A stretch of DNA of 64,000 bases from Paraflavitalea pollutisoli. Its GTDB lineage: Bacteria; Bacteroidota; Bacteroidia; Chitinophagales; Chitinophagaceae. The stretch is taken from positions 4,037,479 to 4,101,478 of the forward strand of contig NZ_JARKMX010000008.1 in assembly GCF_029360705.1 (NCBI RefSeq), read 5' to 3'. The position numbers and the translations under genes were made by a program. Positions within the stretch are counted from its first letter, which is position 1, and every line of letters starts with the position of its first letter. Below the pieces are notes generated by a model. That model was not told where the DNA came from, did not search any database, and saw nothing but the letters and a program-made list of their open reading frames with translations. Below are positions 58,385-64,000 of this stretch, piece after piece.

Positions 58385-59827
58385 CTACAGCGGTGGACAG
58401 TCAGCCCCCTTGTAGCGTTTTTCACCGGTGTTCCTGAACGCGCGGATCACGAGGGCAATATACCCGCCCCCACTCTGCATTTTGTTCTTGGCAAACACCG
58501 TCCCCCAATTGTGTATACCCAGCAACAAAGGGCCGGCTTTGAATGCACCACCTACCCGCAGCTGATTTTCGGTGTTGTACATGATCGGCAGGTAAACGCC
58601 CCACCGGCGTGTTTCCCACCGTGGCGTCACCGTCAGCAGGTTGGTTTCCCGTACATACAGGCGCTGATCACCTGCCAGTGAAGACAGATTGAGCGAAAGA
58701 TCGGCATTGACATAAAAGGCATGGAATAAATAGCGGTCTACATTGATCACGAGTCGCGTTGGATTGATCACATTAAAATTACCCCGCAGCGTGCTCATCG
58801 AACGAACGATGGTAGCCAGGCTGTCATTGAACCCTTCCACCCCATCGATATTCGTAAACTTCTCATCCAGCTGGGCGTCACGGATATCATCTTTTATACC
58901 AGCCACCGATCGGCTGTTATTACTATGCTTGTACTGATTGAATCCGATATCGAGAATGGAGATACCCACCTTCCAGTCATAATCGTAATACCTGTCTTCC
59001 TGGTCATTGAAGTCGGGCACCAGGTAAGGTCGCAGCAGGTATTCAACACCAATGTCCAGGGAAGCGCCACCCTGGGAGTTCCGCAAAAAATCGTTGAGAT
59101 TCTGGCTGGAGCTTTTTTCACTTTTCCACCCATCGAAATTGGAGGAATAGCCATACCGTGCGGACACATCCTTCAGCACGTATACGTCTTTTCCATTCTC
59201 GACGGTACGTTCTACCTCCCCACTCAGCAAGCGGGCATGCGCACCAGCCAACCCACGTGATACTTTAAGCGTACCACCCACATTGAGCCGCGACTTGTCA
59301 TCATCGAAGATCGTTTGCGCATAGGTACCGAAAATCTCCACCCAGTTACTACTGGTGGCATCCGCGGTATATTTGGTGTTGCCGCCATTCATCATCAGAA
59401 AGGAGGTAGCAGACGATATCGTATCGGCAAAATTGTAAGGGCTGGTCTTCGCGCTGGTATAACTACGAAAGTTGATGCCAGCGGCAAAAGCTGCCCGGCG
59501 GCTGAGGGCCACCCGGGTATTCAGCAGGTTTACATTGGTGTTGGCATGCGCATAGCGGCTATAGTTACCCCAATTGAACTGGTATTCCGAATTGGCCGGC
59601 GACGATAACAGCGAATAATTATGCACGGTCACCGCATTGGTATTGGGCTTGCCCTGCACCCCGAATACCGTGATATCCCAGGCAAAAGGCGTGTTGACAA
59701 TGGCAGCAGGGTTATTGCCTACGCCCAGGCTTCCTCCATAAGAAGAGCCATTGATGGCATGGTAGTTCTGAGCAATAACCACTGAATGGGCTACCAGTAG
59801 CCCCAACAAAAAAGGTAAGGTCTTCAT
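58385..59827 (-). CDS. Outer-membrane beta-barrel protein (DUF5723-like)
   Basis: The 480-residue protein has a signal peptide (MKTLPFLLGLLVAHSVVIAQ) and then alternating amphipathic beta-strands with aromatic girdles over its full length, e.g. VALSRRAAFAAGINFRSYTS and ADLSLNLSSLAGDQRLYV. The start YHAINGSSYGGSLGVGNNPA is typical of DUF5723/PorV-like barrel proteins of Bacteroidota. It starts 21 bp after the FAD oxidoreductase gene and may be co-transcribed with the lipid operon, for example as an outer-membrane partner or lipid handler (inference). Confidence 0.72.
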   Translation of the reverse strand: MKTLPFLLGLLVAHSVVIAQNYHAINGSSYGGSLGVGNNPAAIVNTPFAWDITVFGVQGKPNTNAVTVHNYSLLSSPANSEYQFNWGNYSRYAHANTNVNLLNTRVALSRRAAFAAGINFRSYTSAKTSPYNFADTISSATSFLMMNGGNTKYTADATSSNWVEIFGTYAQTIFDDDKSRLNVGGTLKVSRGLAGAHARLLSGEVERTVENGKDVYVLKDVSARYGYSSNFDGWKSEKSSSQNLNDFLRNSQGGASLDIGVEYLLRPYLVPDFNDQEDRYYDYDWKVGISILDIGFNQYKHSNNSRSVAGIKDDIRDAQLDEKFTNIDGVEGFNDSLATIVRSMSTLRGNFNVINPTRLVINVDRYLFHAFYVNADLSLNLSSLAGDQRLYVRETNLLTVTPRWETRRWGVYLPIMYNTENQLRVGGAFKAGPLLLGIHNWGTVFAKNKMQSGGGYIALVIRAFRNTGEKRYKGADCPPL

Positions 59828-59848: not shown

Positions 59849-60988
59849 CTAAAAAGGTTTACCGTGTGTTTGTCCGATGAGCCAGGCGACAAACCGCGGA
59901 AAAGGTTTAAGGGTGGTTATCAAAAAATTGGATAATGAAGCATTGCCGAAAAATCGTTGTATCAGGCGACCCGCCTGCAGCCGACGTCCAAATTGCCGTT
60001 CCCATTGCTGCGTATACTGCAGCTCCATTTCGTAACGGGTAATTTGGCCATTCATGAACTGCCTGATCTCTTCAAATGCCAGTTTACTACCATGTAAAGC
60101 CATACTCATGCCATTTCCGCAAAGCGGCGTGATCATGCCGGCCGCATCGCCTATCAACAGCACATGATTTTCAACCTGGTTTTTTCTGTTAAAGGATATT
60201 CTTGATACCGTAAGTGGTTCTTTGTATAAGAAAGTGGACTGCGTGAAGATCTTTTGTAGGAATGGATTCTTTTGAAGTATTTGTTGTTCCATTGCCTGGA
60301 TATCGTTGTGGCACTTTCGCAAATTGCGCGCCGTGGTCAGATAACACAGACAATAATGGTTGTTTTCAATCCGGGATATACCGCAATATCCGTCAATAAA
60401 ATTATGCAGCGCTATTAAATCTTCCGGAAAATTGGTTTCAATATGGTACTTGACACCCACATAGTGATTCAACTTGTTGGGCTTCACCTGGGTGAAGGGT
60501 CGCTTCCATTTAGCATCCAGATTACTCCTTTTACCAAAAGCGCCCGCCACCACCGCAGCTTCCGTTTCGCCCTTTGAGCTGAACACCACAAAACCGTTGT
60601 TCCGGTACACCACATTCGTGACTTTGGTGTTCTCCATCAGTTCTACCCCTTCTTTTCGGGCAATACCCGCCAGCAAATGATCGAGGGTATAGCGACTGAT
60701 GCCAAAGCCTCCCAGGGGTAGGTTGGCCTCCAGGTGCTTGCCGTTGGGTGCACTCACCACGAGGCGATTGATCACCGGCAGTTGCATATCGCTGAGCGGC
60801 ACCCCCATTTCCTCCAGGAAATTCCAGCTTTCGAGGCTTACGTACTCACCACACACTTTGTGAAAAGGATATTGTTCCCGCTCAAAAACGATGGTTCGGT
60901 AGCCAGCCCTCACACATTGTATCGACAATGCCAGCCCCGCCAGGCCGCCACCAATGATGACAATATCGTATTTTGGATGCAGACTCAA
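59849..60988 (-). CDS. FAD-dependent oxidoreductase, geranylgeranyl-reductase-like
   Basis: This 379-residue flavoprotein has the dinucleotide motif VIIGGGLAGLALSIQ, the family motif FHKVCGEYVS and the second FAD motif LLIGDAAGMITPLCGNGM. It resembles geranylgeranyl-reductase-type and aromatic-hydroxylase-type enzymes. In this operon it may reduce a prenyl chain or oxidise the polyketide ring. The start is TTG at 60986-60988: the codons just upstream are TAG-CAC-GGG, so no ATG or GTG is possible without losing the FAD motif. It is the last of four TTG-initiated genes. Confidence 0.87.
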   Translation of the reverse strand: MSLHPKYDIVIIGGGLAGLALSIQCVRAGYRTIVFEREQYPFHKVCGEYVSLESWNFLEEMGVPLSDMQLPVINRLVVSAPNGKHLEANLPLGGFGISRYTLDHLLAGIARKEGVELMENTKVTNVVYRNNGFVVFSSKGETEAAVVAGAFGKRSNLDAKWKRPFTQVKPNKLNHYVGVKYHIETNFPEDLIALHNFIDGYCGISRIENNHYCLCYLTTARNLRKCHNDIQAMEQQILQKNPFLQKIFTQSTFLYKEPLTVSRISFNRKNQVENHVLLIGDAAGMITPLCGNGMSMALHGSKLAFEEIRQFMNGQITRYEMELQYTQQWERQFGRRLQAGRLIQRFFGNASLSNFLITTLKPFPRFVAWLIGQTHGKPF

Positions 60989-61036
60989 CCCGTGCTATTG
61001 ATGATATGTTATTATTTCCGCATGACCTGCCGGTTA

Positions 61037-61726
61037 TCATAGGCTGTTCACTACAACCAGCCACCTGAAAGCCCACTTCCATTCGACGGAAAAGGTAGTA
61101 ATTCCTGCGCTATTCAGGAGTTCATGCCAATCTTTTTTAACAAATCCTCTCGCTACAGATAAAGGTGCATCATTTTTCACCAGGTAACTGTTGGAAAAGA
61201 GTCGTGTCAGCAGCCGTATCGAATGCCAGGCAATGGTATGCCGATGTAGATCATTGATAAAAAATCCCAACTTCGCATGCGCCTTCATCCACTGAAGCTG
61301 GGGGATTAATTCCCGTTCGTGGAAATGATGACAAAACAGGGAAGAAAAAATAATATCCGGCGGTTGGGTAAAGTGTACATCCCGGTAATCCGAAACAATC
61401 CAGTTACAAGGTAAATTACGCTCCGCCTGCGCCACCCGTATGCAATCGGGGTTGATATCGATTCCAATAAAGGACACCGCTATCCCTTGCTTTTTACACC
61501 AACGATGTATAGCTGCGAGGTTGTCTCCCCCACCACAACCGATCTCACAAACGGTAAGTTGTTGCCGGTCCCCCACCAACCGCCGAAGCCCTGCCAGCGT
61601 GATCCGATGACCACCCAGCCAGGTATTGATGACATTCAACTCCTGCATATTCCGTCGGATATCCTCAAAGGGGATATCGTCCCTGTCCAGCAATTCGGTT
61701 TGATATGAACGTGCACGAATATTCAA
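61037..61726 (-). CDS. Class I SAM-dependent methyltransferase of the polyketide operon
   Basis: The 229-residue methyltransferase has motif I VCEIGCGGGDN, motif II FIGIDINPDC and the downstream IIFSSLFCHHF. It would methylate a hydroxyl or carbon of the polyketide product. The start is uncertain: TTG at 61724-61726 (MNIRARSYQTELLD) fits the usual N-terminus of such proteins and avoids overlap; a TTG at 61781-61783 overlaps the PKS gene by 17 bp. The first ATG (residue 27 on the chosen start) would cut a conserved region. It lies between the PKS and FAD genes on the same strand. Confidence 0.83.
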   Translation of the reverse strand: MNIRARSYQTELLDRDDIPFEDIRRNMQELNVINTWLGGHRITLAGLRRLVGDRQQLTVCEIGCGGGDNLAAIHRWCKKQGIAVSFIGIDINPDCIRVAQAERNLPCNWIVSDYRDVHFTQPPDIIFSSLFCHHFHERELIPQLQWMKAHAKLGFFINDLHRHTIAWHSIRLLTRLFSNSYLVKNDAPLSVARGFVKKDWHELLNSAGITTFSVEWKWAFRWLVVVNSL

Positions 61727-61766
61727 AAGGTAAAAAGGTTGTCGATCGGTTACACAACAAGCGGGC

Positions 61767-62861
61767 TCACTGTATACGCCCAATGAAAGTTTCCATGGTA
61801 AGCCCCGGACCGAAGGCAGCCCCCAGGATGGTAGCGCCTGATTTTGTCGTCAGCGCACGATCCAGCATGCGCTTCAGTACAAACAAGATCGTCGGCGACG
61901 ACATATTGCCATACCCGCGCAAAACCGCTGCCGCATCCTCCAACCCATCTGCCGGCAATTGCAAACACTGCGCAATCGCTTCCAGGATCTTTTTGCCCCC
62001 GGGATGGATACACCAATGCGTTACATCCTCTCTGGTAAGCTGGCATTGCTGTAAGGCGCGATCTGCCAGCTCGCCAAAATCGGCACCAATCAGGTCCGGA
62101 ATATAGCTGCTCAGTGTCATCTGAAATCCGGTTGACGACAACTCCCAGCTCATGTCCTTTTTACCACCTGGTATCACTTCGGCATAAAAGCCTGTCAGCT
62201 CCATACCCTGCTGAGCGGCCTCCGAATGTACGACCAGGGCTGCTGCACTGCCATCGGCAAACAACAAGCTCGACGCGATATTATCGACGGTAGCCGCCCG
62301 TTGAAAATGCAGCGTACATAATTCGGTGGATACGATCAGCACTTTTGCCTGCCGGTCGGCTTTACAAATAACATCGGCAATCTTCAGGGCATGCAGCGCT
62401 GCATAACAACCCATGAAATTGATGGAACTTCGCCAGCTATTGCGCGGCAGCCCCAGCATGTCTACCAACTGCAGATCCAGTCCCGGGGCGCTCATGCCCG
62501 TACAACTCACGGTAATCAAATGGGTGATCTCAGCAGCCGGCATCTTGCCTTCGAGGCAATCCCGCACCGCCTCCACCGACAGCGGAGCCGCATATCGCTG
62601 GTACCAGGCCATGCGTTGCTCGAGTGCAGGAAATGGTTCGAGGTTTTCCGTGGCGGGATAGAATTCCCAGCCCCCTGCCGTACGACTGTAATCTGGTATC
62701 ACGGAATAACGTGTATCGATATCGCTTTGCCGGTACAGGAACCTGATCTTTCGCTTGCCTGCTTCCGTCAGGGCATACACATCCTGCATGAAATTCATGA
62801 TGTCCTGCTGACGGTGTTGGTGAGCAGGTACTGCCTTGCCAATAGCGATAATTTTACTCAA
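61767..62861 (-). CDS. Type III polyketide synthase (chalcone/stilbene synthase-like)
   Basis: This 364-residue homodimer-type ketosynthase has the full catalytic triad: the nucleophilic Cys in NFMGCYAALHA, His in CIHPGGKK and Asn in YGNMSSPT. Other family motifs are SCTGMSAPGLD and GAAFGPGLTME. Such enzymes condense an acyl-CoA starter with malonyl-CoA into resorcinols, pyrones or phloroglucinols. The start chosen is TTG at 62859-62861 (MSKIIAIGKAVP), three bases past the UbiA stop and matching the usual N-terminus. Another TTG at 62904-62906 adds 15 residues and overlaps UbiA. No ATG is available before residue 22 of the protein. Confidence 0.92.
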   Translation of the reverse strand: MSKIIAIGKAVPAHQHRQQDIMNFMQDVYALTEAGKRKIRFLYRQSDIDTRYSVIPDYSRTAGGWEFYPATENLEPFPALEQRMAWYQRYAAPLSVEAVRDCLEGKMPAAEITHLITVSCTGMSAPGLDLQLVDMLGLPRNSWRSSINFMGCYAALHALKIADVICKADRQAKVLIVSTELCTLHFQRAATVDNIASSLLFADGSAAALVVHSEAAQQGMELTGFYAEVIPGGKKDMSWELSSTGFQMTLSSYIPDLIGADFGELADRALQQCQLTREDVTHWCIHPGGKKILEAIAQCLQLPADGLEDAAAVLRGYGNMSSPTILFVLKRMLDRALTTKSGATILGAAFGPGLTMETFIGRIQ

Positions 62862-62863
62862 TC

Positions 62864-63718
62864 TTATTTCCAGATTAACAGGATGAGGAAAGCTATATTG
62901 GTACAAACTGATGCCAATAGATTCATGCGCATGGTATGGGTAAAATCGGCTACGTTTTCATGCTTCCATACTTTCGCAGACCAGCTAAAGAAATATACGA
63001 GAATTGGAAGCATACAAGTTGCCAGCACGAAGAATTTAGTCCCTTCCTGCCGGCTGAAGAACAGGTAGCTCAATACGCCCATGGCCAATGTGTAAATGAT
63101 TGCCGTAAAGATGAAGGTACCGCGAATACCGAGCCTGGCACTAATGGTACGCACCCCATCCCGCCAATCGGCCTCGTGCTGGTAAATTTGTGTCAGCGGA
63201 TAAAAACCACCGATCAGCAGACTTGCTGCCACCATGCCAGCCACCGGCACGGCCACCGTTTTATCGACACTGCAACCGTGGTAAACCATAAAAAAAGTAA
63301 CCGCTCCCTGAAAAAGCACCACTGTCAAATAGCCAATAACCGGGTATTGCTTGAGCCGGATACCGCGGAAGCTATAGGCCCTTGAAGCGAGGATATAAGC
63401 CACTATACTGGCCGCAAAGACCATACTGATCAGCAGACTGAGCAATACCGCGAGCAGGTCCATGACCACACTCACCTGGAATAACTGACGGGTAGGCTGC
63501 AGCGGCTGCCGAACGCCTCCAATACTTCCTTCGTCGCGATCCATATACGAGTTGTAGCCATTGCTGGAAGGATATACCAGGCCATGCAGGATGACAAAGA
63601 TCAACAGGGCATGCCCTGCCGCCACCTCCGGCACCTGACCGAGCGCAAACAGGTATACCGGCAGCAGAAAAAAGGAGAAATGAAAGCGAAGTAGTTGTAT
63701 GGTAGATCGTTGCAACAA
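62864..63718 (-). CDS. UbiA family prenyltransferase
   Basis: The 284-residue protein has about eight transmembrane helices and both Asp-rich prenyl-diphosphate motifs: NGYNSYMDRDEG near residue 55 and YQHEADWRDGVRT near residue 185. It attaches a prenyl chain to an aromatic acceptor in the membrane, here probably the product of the adjacent type III PKS. The start must be TTG at 63716-63718 or the next codon (also TTG): an in-frame stop lies 36 bases upstream with no ATG or GTG between. A TATATTTA element (63740-63747) could be its -7 box. It is the first gene of the operon. Confidence 0.87.
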   Translation of the reverse strand: MLQRSTIQLLRFHFSFFLLPVYLFALGQVPEVAAGHALLIFVILHGLVYPSSNGYNSYMDRDEGSIGGVRQPLQPTRQLFQVSVVMDLLAVLLSLLISMVFAASIVAYILASRAYSFRGIRLKQYPVIGYLTVVLFQGAVTFFMVYHGCSVDKTVAVPVAGMVAASLLIGGFYPLTQIYQHEADWRDGVRTISARLGIRGTFIFTAIIYTLAMGVLSYLFFSRQEGTKFFVLATCMLPILVYFFSWSAKVWKHENVADFTHTMRMNLLASVCTNIAFLILLIWK

Positions 63719-63874
63719 GCTATACGGATGGATGATCTTTAAATATACCGATTACCGCGCGATCCTGTTCTCCCCACTTTCCATCCGCCATTTAACGGAA
63801 AGTCCCCGAAGTAGGGCATAAAAACCGCCGGAATAGCAACCCTTATCTGGTCTTTACTGGTCGGCAAATTGTAA

Positions 63875-64000
63875 GATAAGCCGTAGATAACCCGTATATA
63901 AGCTGTAGATAAGCCGTAGATAAGCTGTCCTTATATAGAGACGGCTTATCTACAGGTTATTGCTGAGTTATTATCGGGTTATTATCAGCTTATCTGGATA
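63875..64000. repeat. 11-bp tandem repeats arranged as an inverted array
   Basis: Five direct 11-bp units (consensus GATAAGCCGTA, 63875-63929) are followed by a 10-base centre and five units of the reverse complement (consensus TACGGCTTATC, 63940-63994), continuing to the window edge. About 38 of 55 positions pair between arms, so a large imperfect hairpin or cruciform is possible. Several units contain TTATCTACA-like sequence, one base from a DnaA box. A further CTTATCTGG copy lies at 63842-63850. Confidence 0.8.

What the first reader, a model, noticed from the sequence alone, without database searches (positions are those of the whole stretch)
59849..63718. Type III PKS, UbiA, methyltransferase and FAD enzyme in one operon
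Seen: four genes on one strand, with 2 to 48 bp between them. Known: Streptomyces SrsA-SrsB-SrsC (type III PKS, methyltransferase, FAD hydroxylase) make methylated phenolic lipids and quinones. Here a UbiA prenyltransferase is added and the flavoprotein resembles geranylgeranyl reductases. The inferred product is a prenylated, methylated alkylresorcinol, alkylpyrone or quinone-like membrane lipid not covered by a known product I can name. An outer-membrane DUF5723-like protein follows 21 bp later and may belong to the unit.
Basis: partly seen in the sequence, partly recalled or inferred. Interest (0 to 1): 0.78.

Follow-up and report, generated by a model that had tools for sequence, protein, structure and literature searches.

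The report
Four-gene phenolic lipid operon with UbiA
A Bacteroidota bacterium carries a four-gene unit, shared with many relatives, that probably builds a fatty phenol or quinone and hands it to a membrane enzyme of the ubiquinone-making family, pointing to a membrane lipid that may not have been isolated yet.

Summary
In detail: UbiA, type III PKS, class I methyltransferase and flavoprotein genes lie on the minus strand, 2, 40 and 48 bp apart. UbiA and PKS form a real unit. In 194 genomes of the family, 80 of 82 with this PKS type carry this UbiA, each within 100 bp; UbiA occurs in 1 of the other 112 genomes, and in 0 of the 13 of those that have only a second PKS type. Adjacent pairs recur in five more families of the phylum, divergent in four of them.

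PKS, methyltransferase and flavoprotein resemble the known planctomycetal/hierridin-type alkylresorcinol triad. The PKS has the Cys-His-Asn triad and Trp at the position that, by CHS numbering and spacing, equals ArsB-281 and favours resorcinol over pyrone. UbiA has the UbiA fold (TM up to 0.74 to a DMAPP-bound archaeal homologue), but Gln replaces the first Asp of its DxxxD motif in 30 of 30 clade members.

Best reading: a prenylated (or otherwise UbiA-modified), methylated, oxidised alkylresorcinol or quinone lipid. The prenyl step and the starter length are inferred, not shown. DUF5723 is not a conserved part. New variant of a known kind.

The parts
62864..63718 (-). UbiA-superfamily membrane protein, 284 aa, first gene of the unit; motif 1 N56-S57-x-x-D60-x-D62-x-G64, motif 2 Q180-H181-x-x-D184
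   Evidence: PF01040 65.5 bits; AlphaFold2 pLDDT 96.4; Foldseek to 4tq4 chains, TM (query) 0.68-0.74; motifs
61767..62861 (-). Type III polyketide synthase; in the 379-residue ORF numbering (start 62906) Cys167, His301, Asn334, Trp254
   Evidence: Pfam, PDB homologues, catalytic triad in 88 of 88 rows, Trp254 in 81 of 88; start codon
61037..61726 (-). Class I SAM methyltransferase, PRK06202-like
   Evidence: Pfam; NF004851 119 bits, below its cut-off of 243; start codon
59849..60988 (-). FAD-dependent oxidoreductase of the geranylgeranyl-reductase/halogenase/hydroxylase superfamily, probable ring oxygenase
   Evidence: FAD_binding_3, TIGR02032 112 bits, below cut-off 158.8, and QhpG 75 bits, below 240; AlphaFold2 pLDDT 90.0; fold neighbours
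63740..63754 (-). Promoter-like element TAATCGGTATATTTA, 21 bp before the UbiA start; genus level only
   Evidence: Same or near-same element in L118, L119, L120, not L117; a loose pattern is found in 2 of 79 named loci
58385..59827 (-). DUF5723 protein, 21 bp downstream; may be co-transcribed here, not a conserved part
   Evidence: PF18990 78.1 bits; presence

Best explanation
The four genes make one membrane-lipid pathway. Step 1 (inferred from family and residues): the PKS primes with an acyl thioester, adds malonyl units and closes the ring by aldol condensation to a 5-alkylresorcinol. Steps 2 and 3 (inferred from the resembling planctomycetal/hierridin triad): the methyltransferase methylates the ring carbon or a hydroxyl, and the flavoprotein oxidises the ring to a hydroxy-phenol, hydroquinone or quinone. 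Step 4 (inferred, least certain): the UbiA protein transfers a prenyl group from a prenyl diphosphate to the electron-rich ring inside the membrane, with an altered metal site. The order of steps 2 to 4 is unknown. The lipid would serve as a redox carrier, antioxidant or structural membrane lipid (inference). Shown: the gene unit, its conservation, the PKS catalytic residues, the predicted UbiA fold. Not shown: any reaction or product.
For: Linkage: 80 of 82 family genomes with this PKS type have this UbiA, 76 on the same strand and 4 divergent, gaps -39 to 100 bp. In the phylum sample the 26 genomes of 395 with this UbiA all carry the PKS; 20 linked, 6 at another place (compared by eye). In families f3 and f10 the genomes with only a low-scoring second PKS type have no UbiA match. 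PKS tree: the 30 rows from UbiA genomes need 2 label changes, shuffled mean 25 (quick method). Resorcinol chemistry: Trp254 aligns with CHS position 256, with Met nine residues on as in ArsC; passages in PMC6274091 and section 8 of PMC5916927 tie Trp there to resorcinol formation. Triad resemblance: Paludisphaera plasmid methyltransferase-flavoprotein-PKS (25, 24 and 37% identity); 4 of 6 planctomycetal PKSs tested made alkylresorcinols in C. glutamicum (PMC10896814 section 12 part 1). UbiA fold matches DMAPP- and GPP-bound homologues.
Against: UbiA has Gln180 for the first Asp of DxxxD in 30 of 30 clade members, and Gly64 for the last Asp of motif 1 in the window, though an acid stands there in 5 of 30, so diphosphate use is unproven. 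The planctomycetal methyltransferase added a probable C-methyl, but the flavoprotein's role stayed unresolved. Tunnel residues compared with PKS18 are mixed (C135 and C197 small; I36 and F201 larger), so a long acyl starter is not predicted. Two family genomes have the PKS without UbiA (G445, G452) and one UbiA without PKS, near a contig start (G524). Triads without UbiA are common in the phylum maps, so UbiA is an add-on to the triad.
Confidence: 0.6

Rival explanations
1. A polyketide-derived isoprenoid quinone: the PKS uses a short starter and makes an orcinol-like head group, UbiA attaches the long isoprenoid tail, and the methyltransferase and flavoprotein decorate the ring, as in ubiquinone synthesis but with the ring from a type III PKS instead of chorismate.
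For: The gene set mirrors UbiA, UbiG/E and UbiH chemistry (recalled); UbiA is first in the unit and nearly always present with this PKS type in the family. PKS tunnel positions F201 and I36 are bulkier than in PKS18. DpgA, a small-starter enzyme (recalled), is the best NCBIfam hit, 171 bits, below its cut-off 425.
Against: Planctomycetal PKSs of the resembling triad used C16-C18 starters. Gln180 in the UbiA metal site. Many triads occur without such a UbiA.
Confidence: 0.18
2. The UbiA-family protein no longer uses prenyl diphosphate: it catalyses another intramembrane step on the alkylresorcinol or acts as a membrane scaffold for the other three enzymes.
For: Gln180 replaces the first Asp of DxxxD in 30 of 30 clade members and 10 of 10 of a distant group in family f24. 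N56, S57, D60, D62, Q177, Y179, Q180 and D184 are invariant in the 78 sequences of A2.
Against: The fold is closest to DMAPP- and GPP-bound UbiA structures. N56, D60, D62, R121, K123 and D184 are kept in 30 of 30. Chlorobium-type UbiA proteins also lack an Asp at the 180 position, having Ser there and Asp at 177, so this position alone does not rule out prenyl transfer.
Confidence: 0.14
3. The PKS makes an alkylpyrone (lactonised) lipid and not a resorcinol.
For: PKS18, a pyrone producer (recalled), aligns over residues 33-374; PKS11 is called a pyrone maker in PMC10896814.
Against: Trp254 sits where CHS has Gly256 and PKS18 Leu266, the position given as Trp281 in ArsB and Gly284 in ArsC. UbiA and a ring oxygenase fit a phenol better than a pyrone (inference). 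Against this: PMC5916927 says PKS11 also has this Trp and groups it with resorcinol formers, so the rule is not strict.
Confidence: 0.07
4. The four genes are neighbours by chance or by lineage only.
For: Conservation of gene order could be vertical inheritance in a family.
Against: Adjacency survives strand rearrangement: 4 divergent pairs in the family and divergent pairs in f3, f8, f10 and f13; co-occurrence holds in six genomes where UbiA is unlinked.
Confidence: 0.01

Closest known systems
Hierridin-type (hidABC) and planctomycetal methyltransferase-oxidoreductase-type III PKS operons (PMC10896814: abstract, sections 12 part 1, 13, 15 and passages; PMC8086630: passages)
   Same: Same three activities in one operon; methyltransferase and flavoprotein have the same best NCBIfam profiles as those of a planctomycete triad; PKS 37% identical to it with the same catalytic residues and Trp
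   Different: A UbiA gene is added and nearly fixed in the family; gene order is PKS-methyltransferase-flavoprotein; identities to the planctomycete proteins are only 24-37%
SrsABC of Streptomyces griseus and PkqABC polyketide-quinone operons of mycobacteria and Streptomyces (PMC9927152: part 1 of 6 of the text and passages)
   Same: PKS, methyltransferase and oxidoreductase/hydroxylase that turn an alkylresorcinol into a benzoquinone; Trp at ArsB position 281 in the PkqA-type enzymes
   Different: No prenyl gene is mentioned (0 occurrences of 'prenyl'); homology of SrsB and SrsC to the genes here was not tested
losA locus of Micromonospora endolithica (PMC7587189, one passage with Table 1)
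   Same: UbiA-family prenyltransferase, methyltransferase and type III PKS genes close together
   Different: Actinobacterial; an acyl-CoA dehydrogenase gene lies between methyltransferase and PKS; UbiA is mentioned only in the table
Raphidiopsis mediterranea hierridin-like cluster with a prenyltransferase (PMC8086630 passages)
   Same: Hierridin-like type III PKS cluster with a prenyltransferase, also predicted to give a new compound
   Different: Single cyanobacterial case; the type of prenyltransferase is not stated in the passages read
UbiA superfamily (ApUbiA, AfUbiA, DGGGP synthase, UBIAD1)
   Same: Fold, most of motif 1 and the last Asp of motif 2
   Different: Gln180 for the first Asp of DxxxD throughout the clade; the last Asp of motif 1 is replaced in 25 of 30

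Membership tests
Type III PKS | N- and C-terminal chalcone/stilbene synthase domains over the Pfam cut-off | tested here: met
   91.9 and 81.2 bits against 27
Type III PKS | Cys-His-Asn catalytic triad | tested here: met
   Cys167, His301, Asn334; 88 of 88 rows
Alkylresorcinol-forming type III PKS | Trp at ArsB position 281 | tested here: met
   Trp254 aligns with CHS 256 through stilbenecarboxylate synthase; equivalence to ArsB 281 rests on spacing and literature, ArsB itself was not aligned
Alkylresorcinol-forming type III PKS | Long-chain acyl tunnel | tested here: inconclusive
   Against PKS18 positions: C135, C197 small, I36 and F201 larger
Hierridin/planctomycetal triad | PKS, methyltransferase and FAD oxidoreductase adjacent | tested here: met
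Hierridin/planctomycetal triad | Methyltransferase and flavoprotein of the same families | tested here: inconclusive
   Same best profiles as a Paludisphaera triad but under curated cut-offs (PRK06202 119 of 243; TIGR02032 112 of 158.8), 24-25% identity
Hierridin/planctomycetal triad | PKS groups with HidC | not tested
   HidC sequence not available; the one planctomycete PKS in the tree has a long branch and falls outside the UbiA rows
SrsABC / PkqABC | Homologous SrsB-type methyltransferase and SrsC-type hydroxylase | not tested
   Sequences not available here
UbiA prenyltransferase | PF01040 over cut-off and UbiA fold | tested here: met
   65.5 bits against 34.2; predicted model TM up to 0.74 to 4tq4
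UbiA prenyltransferase | NDxxDxxxD motif | tested here: not met
   N56-S57-x-x-D60-x-D62-x-G64; ApUbiA has N-N-x-x-D-x-D-x-D; an acid at 64 in 5 of 30 relatives
UbiA prenyltransferase | DxxxD motif | tested here: not met
   Q180-x-x-x-D184, Q180 in 30 of 30
UbiA prenyltransferase | Prenyl transfer from a prenyl diphosphate | not testable with these tools
   -
Geranylgeranyl reductase family | TIGR02032 curated cut-off | tested here: not met
   112.4 bits against 158.8
Flavin-dependent halogenase | WxWxIP motif (motif recalled) | tested here: not met
   Halogenase segment TWVWQIPI aligns with GYCGISRI

The most novel reading that the evidence does not exclude
Bacteroidota hold an undescribed class of membrane redox lipid in which the aromatic head is built by a type III PKS and an isoprenoid tail is added by a UbiA-family enzyme with a rebuilt metal site: a polyketide-derived isoprenoid quinone, or a two-tailed alkyl-prenyl quinone, made beside or instead of menaquinone under some conditions.
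Probability: 0.22. Interest if true: 0.82.

Novelty: new variant of a known kind. Interest (0 to 1): 0.55.

Why it matters
If the reading holds, a lipid pathway whose PKS-UbiA pair is present in 80 of 194 family genomes sampled and in genomes of six other families (linked in five of them) has no product that I could find in print. Polyketide quinones are alternative electron carriers in actinobacteria (PMC9927152, abstract), so a UbiA-modified counterpart in Bacteroidota would extend that idea to another phylum and is directly testable. The UbiA clade with Gln for Asp at its metal site is also a good subject for how intramembrane prenyltransferases change chemistry.

Tried and rejected
Flavoprotein as prenyl reductase: rejected as main reading because homologues of 400 bits or more stand in loci of genomes without a match to this UbiA. 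The fold search could not separate hydroxylase, halogenase and reductase. Halogenase rejected for lack of the tryptophan motif. My first guess, that Gly260 was CHS position 256 (tabulated), was wrong; one search showed it is Trp254. No tRNA and no Rfam match at the gathering threshold in the window. No plasmid match to this UbiA at E 1e-5. The Psychrobacter plasmid PKS falls among the UbiA-type PKS rows but its stretch L226 has no UbiA: read as horizontal transfer. The promoter-like element does not extend beyond the genus. Neighbours of the unlinked UbiA genes gave no partner common to all of them. Paper searches listed no description that I recognised of this four-gene unit in Bacteroidota; I saw listings, not every listed paper, and the library lacks most subscription journals.

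Rows dropped or assigned by hand: one extra PKS-like ORF in L113 (57 bits) was left out of the tree. In one search the window PKS type was set as over 200 bits, and G423, whose PKS is in two short pieces of 87 and 76 bits, was added to it by hand because its UbiA lies beside one piece; without it the count is 79 of 81. Loci were fetched for 79 of the 178 other PKS-positive phylum genomes, best scores first with some spread, so one search is not an even sample. The structure models used only the window and the named loci (77 of 80 UbiA, 64 of 69 flavoproteins listed).


Full report
The finding. That is correct. The genes lie on the minus strand in the order UbiA, PKS, methyltransferase, flavoprotein, then DUF5723. 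With the likely TTG starts the gaps are 2, 40, 48 and 21 bp. The likely starts of all four genes are TTG; in the four genus mates the first start codon of the open frame is TTG in 13 of 16 of these genes.

Where it comes from. The window is part of an 8.76 Mb genome in 16 contigs.

Conservation in the phylum. The PKS protein matches 179 of 395 genomes drawn across the phylum. I mapped 80 loci from 79 of these, plus four genus mates and the window. PKS, methyltransferase and flavoprotein recur together widely, though not in every map. A UbiA of the same type lies near the PKS in 24 of the 85 maps: same strand in families f1 and f2, divergent in f3, f8, f10 and f13. A profile of these UbiA proteins, run on a phylum sample of 395 genomes, finds 26 genomes at 336 bits or more. 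All 26 also have the PKS; in 20 the two are neighbours, in 6 they are apart (G146, G387, G072, G166, G190, G158, compared by eye). A weaker group at 121-161 bits lies in family f24, at other places than the PKS, and Chlorobium-like pigment synthase-type proteins of family f18 score under 50 bits (the type is inferred).

Conservation in the family. In 194 genomes of the family 95 have a PKS match and 81 the UbiA. I counted 82 as the window's PKS type (over 200 bits, plus G423, whose PKS is in two short pieces) and 13 as a second type (85-142 bits). Of the 82, 80 have the UbiA, with gaps of -39 to 100 bp, 76 on the same strand and 4 divergent. Two have PKS only (G445, G452); one has UbiA only, near a contig start (G524). 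None of the 13 with only the second type has it. The Fisher value printed ignores relatedness and is not quoted as a probability. A PKS tree of 88 rows (quick method) gives the same picture: the 30 rows from UbiA genomes need two label changes against a shuffled mean of 25. They stand on two branches of one unresolved fork, and the one intruder is a Psychrobacter plasmid PKS. Among the 80 named loci closest to the window's UbiA all have UbiA followed by PKS, and 65 of 80 show all four genes; several loci are cut by contig ends.

The PKS. Catalytic Cys167, His301 and Asn334 are present in 88 of 88 rows. An alignment to stilbenecarboxylate synthase places Trp254 at CHS position 256 and Met263 at position 265. 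Passages of a review (PMC6274091) say that Trp281 of ArsB, Gly284 in ArsC, decides between resorcinol and pyrone and mention ArsC Met293; the nine-residue spacing fits. Section 8 of PMC5916927 and passages of PMC9927152 use the same residue, although PKS11, called a pyrone maker elsewhere, is also said to have it. Trp is present in 30 of 30 rows from UbiA genomes, 48 of 55 other Bacteroidota rows and 3 of 3 from other phyla; the seven exceptions have Phe and lie in families f5, f3 and f10. I therefore expect a resorcinol. The starter length is open: positions compared with the PKS18 tunnel are mixed.

Methyltransferase and flavoprotein. Best NCBIfam hits are PRK06202 (119 bits) and the geranylgeranyl reductase superfamily (112 bits), followed by QhpG, a flavin monooxygenase; all below the curated cut-offs. 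A planctomycete plasmid carries a methyltransferase-flavoprotein-PKS triad whose first two proteins hit the same profiles (232 and 116 bits); identities to the window are 25, 24 and 37%. PMC10896814 (abstract, sections 12 part 1, 13 and 15, and passages) reports that 58 of 96 planctomycetal PKS genes lie in such operons, that 4 of 6 PKSs tested made C15 or C17 alkylresorcinols in C. glutamicum while two without the operon gave no product, that one methyltransferase probably adds a C-methyl, and that the flavoprotein's role remained open. The AlphaFold2 model of the flavoprotein (pLDDT 90.0) is closest to halogenases, 3-hydroxybenzoate 6-hydroxylase, a Cytophaga flavoprotein and a geranylgeranyl reductase-like protein, which does not decide the reaction. 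The halogenase tryptophan motif (recalled) is missing. As homologues occur beside the PKS in genomes without this UbiA, ring oxidation is the more likely task.

The UbiA protein. The model (78 sequences, pLDDT 96.4) matches AfUbiA with DMAPP and Mg at TM 0.68-0.74, DGGGP synthase, ApUbiA and UBIAD1. Phmmer with the single sequence found nothing in the PDB at E 1; the profile found ApUbiA and chlorophyll a synthase. Against ApUbiA, motif 1 keeps N56, D60 and D62 but has Gly64 for the last Asp; motif 2 has Gln180 for the first Asp of DxxxD and keeps D184. E. coli UbiA has N-D-x-x-D-x-x-x-D and D-x-x-x-D. Gln180 is found in 30 of 30 clade members and in 10 of 10 of the weaker f24 group; position 64 varies and is an acid in 5 of 30. 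Chlorobium-type proteins have Ser at 180 but Asp at 177, where this clade has Gln. A passage of PMC7839719 gives NDxxDxxxD and DxxxD as the two motifs. So the protein belongs to the superfamily by fold and profile but fails these sequence features. It may still prenylate with a changed metal site, or do something else. Passages of PMC12172877 show that plant members have varied prenylation chemistry; they do not report altered motifs.

How it most likely works. See the best explanation. I give 0.60 to a UbiA-modified, methylated and oxidised alkylresorcinol or quinone lipid. The coupling of UbiA to the PKS I hold nearly certain; the prenyl step is the weakest link.

Known or new. The triad is known. 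UbiA or a prenyltransferase beside a type III PKS has two partial precedents: the losA locus of Micromonospora (Table 1 passage) and one cyanobacterial cluster (passages). I found no report of the Bacteroidota unit in the held papers (searches, listings). I file it as a new variant of a known kind, with interest 0.55.

Noticed in passing
window 63874-63995: 11-bp tandem repeat (AGATAAGCCGT, 4.7 copies) followed by inverted copies, 156-277 bp before the UbiA start; 4 matches in the window where 100 shuffles give none, and 18 matches at five places of the genome. L118 and L119 have like arrays before the same operon, L120 a diverged unit, L117 a weak one.
   Followed up: partly
L110-L116 (for example L115:5431-10804): A second type III PKS clade with Phe at the cyclisation position; in L115 it sits with flavoprotein, methyltransferase, FabA-like, ketosynthase and phosphopantetheinyl transferase genes, and in L111 also a short-chain dehydrogenase, as if the acyl starter were made on a dedicated carrier.
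   Followed up: partly
L069:2206-8816; similar gene sizes in other loci of families f24 and f22: In L069 the PKS-methyltransferase-flavoprotein triad follows a MATE transporter gene and a 1288-residue sensor kinase gene (Pfam run on L069 only).
   Followed up: partly
L223:3119-8128: A Hymenobacter plasmid carries a 44% identical flavoprotein beside an isonitrile synthase and a TauD-like dioxygenase, so this flavoprotein family may also serve another pathway.
   Followed up: no
L226:4995-7818: A Psychrobacter plasmid holds a PKS that falls among the Bacteroidota UbiA-type rows, with flavoprotein and methyltransferase but no UbiA in the stretch.
   Followed up: partly
L201-L210: Family f24 has a distant UbiA with the same Gln180 and NSxxDxD motifs, not beside the PKS, in most of these loci followed by a protein of about 205 residues; the one tested had no NCBIfam match.
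   Followed up: partly
L211:7083-7889, L213:5370-6155: Two unlinked UbiA genes of the main clade have another methyltransferase-like gene just upstream; L214 has a similar-looking neighbour.
   Followed up: no
L150, L194: Public MAG records titled Williamsia and Flavobacterium carry Chitinophagaceae-like copies of the UbiA, perhaps mislabelled or mixed bins.
   Followed up: no
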